A stretch of 64,000 bases of DNA from Hyphomicrobiales bacterium (GTDB lineage Bacteria; Pseudomonadota; Alphaproteobacteria; Rhizobiales; Rhizobiaceae), in the NCBI GenBank assembly GCA_900473915.1, contig UCNG01000002.1, forward strand, positions 191,078-255,077, in the 5' to 3' direction. Positions 13,459 to 13,802 of the stretch are shown here, one piece after another. Position numbers and translations under genes: made by a program. The notes beneath the pieces were generated by a model. That model worked only from the letters and a program-made list of their open reading frames with translations, did not search any database and was not told the origin of the DNA. Within the stretch, counting starts at the first letter, position 1, and every line of letters starts with the position of its first letter.

Positions 13459-13508
13459 CGCAAAAAGAAATGGCATCCGTCGCGGGAGGAGGAGCGACGG
13501 ATGCCATT
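13459..13508 (-). terminator. Terminator formed by the last CCTCCTCCC hairpin
   Basis: A perfect 15-bp stem (13469-13483 with 13494-13508) and a 10-base loop, followed in minus-strand sense by TTTCTTTTTG. It should end the DUF1127-sRNA transcript 69 bases before trmFO, though the interrupted U-run could allow some read-through. Confidence 0.75.
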
Positions 13509-13618
13509 ATGGTAAGACCGGCATTGGGAGGAGGAGAACCGGTCTTGTTATCGCAGAACCTGGGAGGAGGGTGGTTCTGCGATGAACCAAGTCTGGTGGG
13601 AGGAGGAGCCAGACTTGG
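13459..13618 (-). ncRNA. Four-hairpin CCTCCTCCC array (cuckoo/CcsR-type sRNA locus)
   Basis: On the minus strand, directly after the DUF1127 stop, come four hairpins: 13587-13596/13609-13618 (10 bp), 13550-13560/13573-13583 (11 bp), 13514-13521/13539-13546 (8 bp) and 13469-13483/13494-13508 (15 bp). The stems are unrelated in sequence, yet every loop contains CCTCCTCCC (plus strand GGGAGGAGG). The last hairpin is followed by TTTCTTTTTG, so it also serves as terminator. CCUCCUCCC is complementary to Shine-Dalgarno sequences. In Rhodobacter sphaeroides a DUF1127 gene is followed by four such RNAs (CcsR1-4), and related loci are known as cuckoo RNAs. Stem conservation with fixed loops argues for functional RNA. 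Confidence 0.85.
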
Positions 13619-13655
13619 AGAAACCCATATCGGGAAAATTATGAGGCTCGTTGAA

Positions 13656-13802
13656 TTAGCGAGCCTTGGTCTGGCGAGCCACGAACGGAATGTCCGCGCG
13701 GGAGATGCCAAGATCGTTCAGCTCACGGGTGGAGAGCTGGCTGAGTTCATTGACGGTGTCGCGGTAACGGCGCCAGTTGTTGTAAGAGCGAAGCAGGTTC
13801 AT
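13656..13802 (-). CDS. Small DUF1127 protein (CcaF1-like)
   Basis: A 48-residue basic protein starting MNLLRSYNNWRRYRD, with the DUF1127 core LSTRELNDLGISRADIPFVA at residues 23-42. It is shorter than most ORF cut-offs but clearly real: AAGGA sits 9 bases before the ATG and the domain is complete. In Rhodobacter the DUF1127 protein CcaF1 is an RNA-binding protein involved in maturation and turnover of the sRNAs encoded just downstream. The same arrangement here (stop to first hairpin 37 bases) suggests that mRNA and sRNAs come from one precursor. DUF1127 proteins also act in other contexts (phosphate and carbon metabolism in Agrobacterium), so the exact role is inferred from context. Confidence 0.92.
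   Translation of the reverse strand: MNLLRSYNNWRRYRDTVNELSQLSTRELNDLGISRADIPFVARQTKAR

What the first reader, a model, noticed from the sequence alone, without database searches (positions are those of the whole stretch)
13459..13802. DUF1127 gene followed by exactly four CCUCCUCCC hairpins: a cuckoo/CcsR-type sRNA locus
Seen in sequence: a 48-residue DUF1127 gene on the minus strand and, after its stop, four hairpins (13609-13587, 13583-13550, 13546-13514, 13508-13469, in transcription order) whose stems differ completely while each loop keeps CCTCCTCCC; the last ends in a U-rich tract. Stem covariation around a fixed loop is strong evidence for selection on RNA structure. Known: Rhodobacter sphaeroides has a DUF1127 gene (CcaF1) followed by four CCUCCUCCC RNAs (CcsR1-4), and the cuckoo RNA family is described in alphaproteobacteria. 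The loops are perfect anti-Shine-Dalgarno sequences, so the locus could sponge or block many ribosome binding sites. Whether the four units are processed separately in this organism is inference.
Basis: partly seen in the sequence, partly recalled or inferred. Interest (0 to 1): 0.88.

Follow-up and report, generated by a model that had tools for sequence, protein, structure and literature searches.

The report
DUF1127 gene with anti-Shine-Dalgarno RNA tail
A tiny protein gene in an Ochrobactrum/Brucella relative carries in its RNA tail four hairpins that mimic the ribosome's mRNA-reading sequence; this is a known kind of regulatory RNA, and its probable on-switch points to one regulator, VtlR/LsrB, as a likely controller of this RNA family in the genus.

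Summary
A 48-residue DUF1127 gene (13656-13802, minus) is followed by four hairpins, each with CCTCCTCCC in an open loop; these are the only four copies of that 9-mer in the window. Rfam files hairpins 2-4 as ar14 (RF02344, 95.9 bits, cut-off 58.8). Twenty-seven orthologs covary: 15 of 45 pairs with two-sided changes, reached by 0 of 500 shuffles. So this is a cuckoo/ar14 RNA in the published DUF1127-linked "CIN1" arrangement, a known kind. The CcsR1-4 parallel is loose: a Rhodobacter RNA of that set is described with two hairpins, so four hairpins are not four CcsR RNAs.

What I add: the DUF1127 promoter holds a VtlR/LsrB-like box whose 12-base core is identical in 31 of 31 orthologs. In the closest held genome 5 of 5 ar14 copies have such a site upstream, of 35 sites in 4.4 Mb. 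By gene order this gene is probably BAB1_0914, a published VtlR target handled in the passages I saw as a small-protein gene. Best reading: VtlR/LsrB switches on a transcript whose 3' part blocks ribosome-binding sites, chiefly of ABC-transporter mRNAs. Expression, processing and targets here are inferred.

The parts
13656..13802 (-). DUF1127 gene, 48 aa (MNLLRSYNNWRRYRDTVNELSQLSTRELNDLGISRADIPFVARQTKAR)
   Evidence: PF06568 E 8e-18; ortholog found in 30 of 30 held loci
13811..13815 (-). ribosome-binding site AAGGA of the DUF1127 gene
   Evidence: read directly
13867..13872 (-). -10-like TTATAT; start of transcription near 13860 is inferred
   Evidence: invariant in 31 of 31 aligned promoters; the sigma-70 scan finds no consensus promoter in 13350-14120
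13905..13919 (-). VtlR/LsrB-like box CAAAGCAGCTATGCA, reading GCATAGCTGCTTT (GCAT-N3-TG-N3-T) on the other strand
   Evidence: 13 of 15 to the published CAATGCAGCCATGCA; core GCAGCTATGCAA invariant in 31 of 31. Within this window alone such matches are not beyond chance
13939..13948 (-). conserved block AATCGATTTA of unknown role
   Evidence: invariant in 31 of 31
13587..13618 (-). hairpin 1, loop CCUCCUCCC
   Evidence: 6 pairs with two-sided changes; outside the Rfam match
13550..13583 (-). hairpin 2, loop CCUCCUCCC
   Evidence: 5 pairs with two-sided changes
13514..13546 (-). hairpin 3, loop CCUCCUCCC
   Evidence: 3 pairs with two-sided changes
13469..13508 (-). hairpin 4, loop CCUCCUCCC, probably also the transcription terminator
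   Evidence: 15-pair stem, 1 pair with two-sided changes
13462..13468 (-). U-rich tail TCTTTTT after hairpin 4
   Evidence: read directly
13468..13587 (-). Rfam ar14 (RF02344) match covering hairpins 2-4
   Evidence: 95.9 bits, cut-off 58.8
11987..13387 (-). trmFO, the next gene downstream (start assumed)
   Evidence: PF01134 GIDA E 4.5e-98; 97% to Ochrobactrum sp. CGA5

Best explanation
One transcript of about 400 nt starts near 13860, encodes the small DUF1127 protein, and ends in a four-hairpin ar14/cuckoo RNA that also serves as terminator. It is switched on by the LysR-type regulator VtlR/LsrB, binding at 13905-13919. The 3' part, whole or cut free as in Rhodobacter, acts in trans: any of four equivalent CCUCCUCCC loops pairs with purine-rich Shine-Dalgarno sequences (GGGAGGAGG) and blocks ribosome binding, mainly on mRNAs of ABC-type nutrient uptake systems. 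The four loops raise the number of seeds per transcript; the stems display them and are free to drift as long as they pair. Shown here: anatomy, covariation, the conserved box, the distribution and the candidate target sites. Inferred: transcription, VtlR binding, processing and target repression in this organism.
For: Rfam ar14 match. Fold with open loops, z -10.5. Covariation in 27 orthologs: 15 of 45 pairs with two-sided changes against 9.3 in shuffles; 96.2% of cells paired against at most 40% when slid. DNA of the locus matched in 35 of 35 genus genomes. The box core GCAGCTATGCAA is invariant in 31 of 31 promoters, 110-116 bp before the ATG. The second DUF1127-ar14 locus has CAGCTATGCA in 20 of 20 stretches fetched, 93-98 bp before the gene. 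In the closest genome G016, 5 of 5 ar14 copies have TGCATANCWG within 350 nt upstream, with 35 sites in 4.4 Mb; 0.014 loci expected, Poisson 4e-12 if independent. Of 26 standalone arrays from other genomes 25 have it. Published: LsrB activates NfeR1 and its aSD seeds silence ntrB; VtlR activates BAB1_0914, BAB2_0512 and BAB2_0574. In G016 3 of 6 DUF1127 genes carry the box just upstream. GGGAGGAGG before an ATG in G016: 7 sites besides ar14's own complements, 4 with an ORF of at least 60 aa, 3 of these ABC-transporter parts. The 9-mer is kept in 20 of 22 orthologs of one binding-protein gene and 9 of 11 of another.
Against: No RNA evidence was available here. The box in this window alone is not beyond chance (11 found, 11.2 expected; 4 found, 3.7 expected). 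The genome count of TGCATANCWG in G016 is like its reversed control (35 against 32); only the positions are special. I chose that pattern after seeing the ar14 promoters, and paralogous promoters may share ancestry, so 4e-12 overstates the case. In Agrobacterium a published genome-wide search with the VtlR consensus found only one further site, and one VtlR-dependent sRNA there lacks the box. ABC enrichment is weak: 4 of 10 scanned against 1 of 20 control proteins (p 0.03); 4 of 14 against 1 of 23 if unscanned ORFs count as non-ABC (p 0.06). Conserved SD sequences are expected anyway, and conservation of ordinary SDs was not measured.
Confidence: 0.72

Rival explanations
1. The DUF1127 protein is the only product that matters. 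The hairpins are a strong, stable 3' end that protects the mRNA and stops transcription before trmFO.
For: H4 with its U-rich tail looks like a terminator. The Brucella passages I saw treat these genes as small-protein genes. DUF1127 proteins from other species complement an Agrobacterium mutant in a process ascribed to protein contact.
Against: Four hairpins with an identical loop are more than a terminator needs. Stems drift while the loop mostly stays, in 27 orthologs. Three further ar14 copies in G016 have no DUF1127 gene beside them.
Confidence: 0.12
2. Cis role: the hairpins are a binding platform for the DUF1127 protein, which controls its own transcript, as CcaF1 modulates maturation of ccaF1-CcsR.
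For: CcaF1 binds RNA and affects CcsR maturation. The gene lies within 260 nt before hairpins in 30 of 53 trmFO loci that have both.
Against: In 23 of those 53 the hairpins are not directly behind the gene, and G016 has three copies without a DUF1127 gene beside them. The loop is complementary to SDs rather than being an arbitrary tag. RNA binding is not general for DUF1127: none was found for YjiS.
Confidence: 0.08
3. A general translation damper: an abundant decoy that occupies many SD sequences at once under stress, without specific targets.
For: The loop is complementary to GGAGG-type SDs; 3-8 ar14 copies per genome in 35 genus genomes.
Against: A specific target is shown for NfeR1 in S. 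meliloti. The full 9-mer is rare before ATGs: 7 sites in G016 besides ar14's own complements. Leaders of the four real ORFs pair with the loops at -20.2 to -26.5 kcal/mol; the best of 30 control SD leaders reaches -19.2, median -9.8.
Confidence: 0.08

Closest known systems
ar14 / NfeR1 (Rfam RF02344; S. meliloti)
   Same: CCUCCUCCC loops on variable stems, same Rfam model, LsrB-type box upstream, ABC-transporter mRNAs as candidate targets
   Different: ar14 RNAs are described with three hairpins and NfeR1 with its own promoter; here four hairpins sit behind a DUF1127 gene. The NtrC site of plant symbionts is reported not evident in Brucella
cuckoo RNA family / CIN1 locus (SmelA075, SmelA099)
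   Same: adjacent CCUCCUCCC hairpins next to a short DUF1127 gene; four hairpins as in SmelA099
   Different: nothing in the anatomy; a VtlR/LsrB box in front of a joint transcript is not mentioned in the passages I saw
ccaF1-CcsR1-4 of Rhodobacter sphaeroides
   Same: DUF1127 gene followed by anti-SD RNAs and a terminator
   Different: four RNAs released by RNase E under an RpoHI/RpoHII promoter, one of that set described with two hairpins (identity recalled); CcaF1 has 71 aa, not 48
AbcR1/AbcR2
   Same: anti-SD-like seeds, VtlR/LsrB control of at least one of the pair, ABC-transporter targets
   Different: another RNA family; seeds described as similar but not identical

Membership tests
Rfam RF02344 ar14 | covariance-model score above the curated cut-off | tested here: met
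   95.9 against 58.8 bits, model 1-123 complete
cuckoo RNA / CIN1 | adjacent hairpins each with a CCUCCUCCC loop | tested here: met
   four hairpins, motif unpaired in all four
cuckoo RNA / CIN1 | stems vary while the structure is kept | tested here: met
   15 of 45 pairs with two-sided changes in 27 orthologs; the structure was taken from the window, which favours it
cuckoo RNA / CIN1 | short DUF1127 gene next to the hairpins | tested here: met
   PF06568 E 8e-18; 30 of 30 held orthologs
NfeR1-type control | LsrB/VtlR box upstream of the promoter | tested here: met
   sequence only, no binding test: core invariant in 31 of 31, 5 of 5 ar14 copies in G016
NfeR1-type action | base pairing of the loop with SD regions lowers translation | not testable with these tools
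   candidate sites only
ccaF1-CcsR1-4 | four separate RNAs cut from the 3' UTR by RNase E | not testable with these tools
   needs RNA data
ccaF1-CcsR1-4 | RpoHI/RpoHII promoter | not tested
   only a sigma-70 consensus scan was run, 0 found

The most novel reading that the evidence does not exclude
In the Ochrobactrum/Brucella genus VtlR/LsrB is the dedicated switch of the whole anti-SD RNA family. All ar14 copies, those behind DUF1127 genes and the standalone ones, form one regulon. Two of the three published VtlR-activated small-protein genes are then host transcripts of anti-SD RNAs, and the standalone copies are unrecognised members of the VtlR regulon, which could explain why removing the known targets does not reproduce the vtlR mutant.
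Probability: 0.57. Interest if true: 0.65.

Novelty: new member of a known kind. Interest (0 to 1): 0.5.

Why it matters
PMC7486931 leaves open whether the VtlR-activated gene atu1667 acts as a small protein or as a regulatory RNA (passage). In the Ochrobactrum/Brucella genus the corresponding transcripts appear to end in a conserved anti-SD RNA, so the question becomes directly testable: change the loops and leave the protein alone. It also suggests that phenotypes credited to these small proteins may belong partly to the RNA tail.

Tried and rejected
Rejected: a coding reading of the hairpins. A 574-codon frame runs from trmFO through all four hairpins, and a 147-codon frame runs opposite. 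Hairpin spacings are all multiples of three in only 14 of 31 loci, and an antisense frame is open over the array in 6 of 31; the 147-aa ORF has no Pfam match.

Rejected: the box as evidence on its own. In this window its count equals chance; it counts only through conservation and position.

Led nowhere: the held Brucella sRNA review (PMC9751625) has no hit for Shine, ar14, Rfam, cuckoo, DUF1127 or hairpin. No whole genome is held for the window. The control windows can overlap the boxes themselves (117 of 1000 had at most 3 mismatches), so that control is rough; 836 of 1000 had a best match of 5-7 mismatches. Classical Brucella genomes could not be told apart among the unnamed ones, so BAB1_0914 is assigned by gene order only. 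A first regular expression for target starts missed most binding-protein orthologs and was replaced by tblastn.

Rows dropped: for covariation 27 of 31 sequences were used; L138, L151 and L156 (no full set of four hairpins in the extract) and L137 (same sequence as L136) were left out. For targets 10 of 14 ORFs of at least 60 aa were scanned; unscanned L232 looks by eye like a transporter permease piece, and counting it gives 5 of 14 (p 0.02). For the control, 30 of 44 places were looked at and 20 of 23 such ORFs scanned; its spacer (4-9) was narrower than that of the test (3-11). The 20 stretches of the second DUF1127 locus and the 20 of standalone arrays are my choice from the lists.

Mended on re-check: duplex energies used leaders typed by hand and were redone on the fetched sequences.

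Full report
What is there. On the minus strand a 48-residue DUF1127 gene (13656-13802; PF06568 E 8e-18) is followed by four hairpins (13618-13587, 13583-13550, 13546-13514, 13508-13469). Each shows CCUCCUCCC unpaired. The 9-mer occurs four times in the 64-kb window, all here, with 0.43 expected. The fold of 13459-13656 has z -10.5. The next gene downstream is trmFO; on the other side a DUF2157 gene, a GDYXXLXY gene, a tRNA and the trigger-factor gene lie on the plus strand.

Which organism. TrmFO is 97% identical to Ochrobactrum sp. CGA5, and the closest held genome, G016, is 98% identical over the 701-base locus. The window is thus from the Ochrobactrum/Brucella genus; no genome is held for it.

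Is the structure real. Rfam RF02344 (ar14) matches 13468-13587 with 95.9 bits, cut-off 58.8. In 27 orthologs 96.2% of cells pair, 15 of 45 pairs have two-sided changes, and no shuffle of 500 reaches any of the five measures. Sliding the partners drops pairing to 40% or less. Two cautions from that tool: related sequences can beat shuffles, and the structure came from one of the sequences. Hairpin 1, outside the Rfam match, has 6 pairs with two-sided changes, so it is genuine too. Stems of H4 hardly vary, as fits a terminator. The array is not uniform: 8 of the 30 held orthologs show fewer than four exact motifs.

How widespread. RF02344 is found in 35 of 35 genus genomes with 3-8 copies each. 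In 199 genomes of the order, 63 have a match at E 0.001 and 29 pass the cut-off, with stricter filters that lose weak matches; 0 of 14 control genomes match. Of 80 trmFO loci (the best 80 of 591), 53 have two or more motifs within 2.2 kb upstream of trmFO, and all 53 also have a DUF1127 gene there. In 30 some hairpins follow the gene within 260 nt, in 23 they do not. The joint arrangement is seen in Brucella/Ochrobactrum, Phyllobacterium, Mesorhizobium and Aurantimonas loci; the 23 are mainly Rhizobium, Sinorhizobium and Ensifer.

The promoter. Aligning 31 promoters shows four invariant blocks: AATCGATTTA, GCAGCTATGCAA, AAAACAAT and TTATAT. The second fits the VtlR/LsrB box. PMC12595884 gives the VtlR motif as CAATGCAGCCATGCA (passages), PMC7486931 as GCAT-N3-TG-N3-T (passages); the window has CAAAGCAGCTATGCA. 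In the window alone such matches are at chance level. Position is what counts: in G016 the 5 ar14 copies each have TGCATANCWG upstream, at 43-50 nt for the three copies without a DUF1127 gene beside them and at 301 and 318 nt, in front of the DUF1127 gene, for the other two. The genome has 35 such sites, its reversed control 32. Expected loci by chance 0.014, Poisson 4e-12 if independent; paralogs are not fully independent and I drew the pattern from these promoters. In 20 stretches with the second DUF1127-ar14 locus CAGCTATGCA is present in 20, and of 26 standalone arrays from the 20 other stretches 25 have the site.

Link to published work. PMC12595884 and PMC7486931 (passages) say VtlR activates BAB1_0914 and BAB2_0512, the former paper also BAB2_0574; PMC12595884 calls the three B. 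melitensis homologs DUF1127 proteins. PMC7355872 lists BAB1_0917 as trigger factor (passage). Counting genes in the window from trigger factor back, DUF1127 falls on 0914; this is inference by gene order. In G016 three of six DUF1127 genes carry the box just upstream: this locus, a second with an ar14 array behind it, and a third without one directly behind it; a fourth (L207) has a loose match more than 1 kb away. PMC7486931 says it is unknown whether atu1667, the Agrobacterium ortholog, works as a protein or as an sRNA. PMC12595884 reports from earlier work that deleting the four known VtlR targets did not affect B. abortus virulence, and that restoring them singly did not rescue the vtlR mutant. 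Three further ar14 copies with boxes in G016 would be natural further members of the regulon.

Against this link. A published genome-wide search with the VtlR consensus in Agrobacterium found only one further site, and a VtlR-dependent sRNA there has no box. In the same paper 24 of 228 known sRNAs were predicted to change in the vtlR mutant; whether ar14 copies are among them I could not see. A paper titled as showing that a LysR-type regulator controls numerous sRNAs in A. tumefaciens (Eisfeld 2021) was seen only as a reference.

Targets. GGGAGGAGG 3-11 nt before an ATG occurs 11 times in G016 (1 for the reversed control). Four are the complements of ar14 hairpins; of the other seven, four have an ORF of at least 60 aa: a family-3 solute-binding protein, an ABC ATPase, a family-1 solute-binding protein and an amidohydrolase. 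Their leaders pair with the four loops at -20.2 to -26.5 kcal/mol; among 30 control leaders the best is -19.2, median -9.8. With the 8-mer, 4 of 10 scanned proteins are ABC parts against 1 of 20 for an ordinary SD (p 0.03); counting unscanned ORFs as non-ABC, 4 of 14 against 1 of 23 (p 0.06). The full 9-mer is kept in 20 of 22 orthologs of the family-1 gene and in 9 of 11 of the family-3 gene; 19 distant homologs of the latter lack it. Conservation of ordinary SDs was not measured as a control.

Known or new. PMC3927594 section 2.7 (read whole) describes three- and four-hairpin CCUCCUCCC RNAs in Rhizobiales and proposes blocking of ribosome-binding sites. PMC10746234 (passages) shows LsrB activation of NfeR1 and silencing of ntrB by its aSD seeds, and reports from earlier work a conserved upstream stretch in NfeR1 homologs that include Brucella, so part of the promoter result is foreshadowed. 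PMC10253847 (passages) names the DUF1127 plus CcsR-like arrangement CIN1, after Reinkensmeier and Giegerich 2015 (not held). So the kind is known. In the paper searches (listings only) I saw no paper that says the VtlR-activated DUF1127 transcripts of Brucella end in ar14 RNA, or that VtlR controls all ar14 copies; subscription papers are mostly not in that library, so this is not proof of absence.

Mechanism. Most likely VtlR/LsrB activates one transcript; the DUF1127 protein and the anti-SD RNA come from it; the RNA represses uptake systems at their ribosome-binding sites. Shown: anatomy, covariation, box conservation, candidate sites. From the literature on relatives: LsrB activation and aSD-dependent silencing (S. 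meliloti), RNase E processing with CcaF1 (R. sphaeroides). Inferred: all of this in the present organism.

Noticed in passing
L014 2809-3210, L015 3447-3888: Nine CCTCCTCCC hairpins in three tandem triplets behind DUF1127 genes; 7 of 9 Mesorhizobium loci fetched have six, also in triplets. I recall the published range as two to four adjacent hairpins.
   Followed up: partly
L066 2212-2634, L045 3097-3793: Aurantimonas loci with eight and seven CCTCCTCCC motifs, in L066 as four doublets.
   Followed up: no
L007 2860-3174: Aminobacter has five motifs at a spacing of about 76 nt, twice the usual one.
   Followed up: no
window 13939-13948: AATCGATTTA is invariant in 31 of 31 promoters, upstream of the box; no role found. 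It may belong to the divergent DUF2157 gene.
   Followed up: no
window 13389-13832 (+): A 147-codon frame runs antisense through the hairpins; no Pfam match, and an antisense frame is open over the array in only 6 of 31 loci, so it is probably spurious.
   Followed up: yes
L181, L186, L188, L190, L192, L196: Two standalone ar14 arrays stand in divergent orientation, roughly 570-590 nt apart where both are listed (752 in G016), each with a box or, in one array of L186, a near-box.
   Followed up: partly
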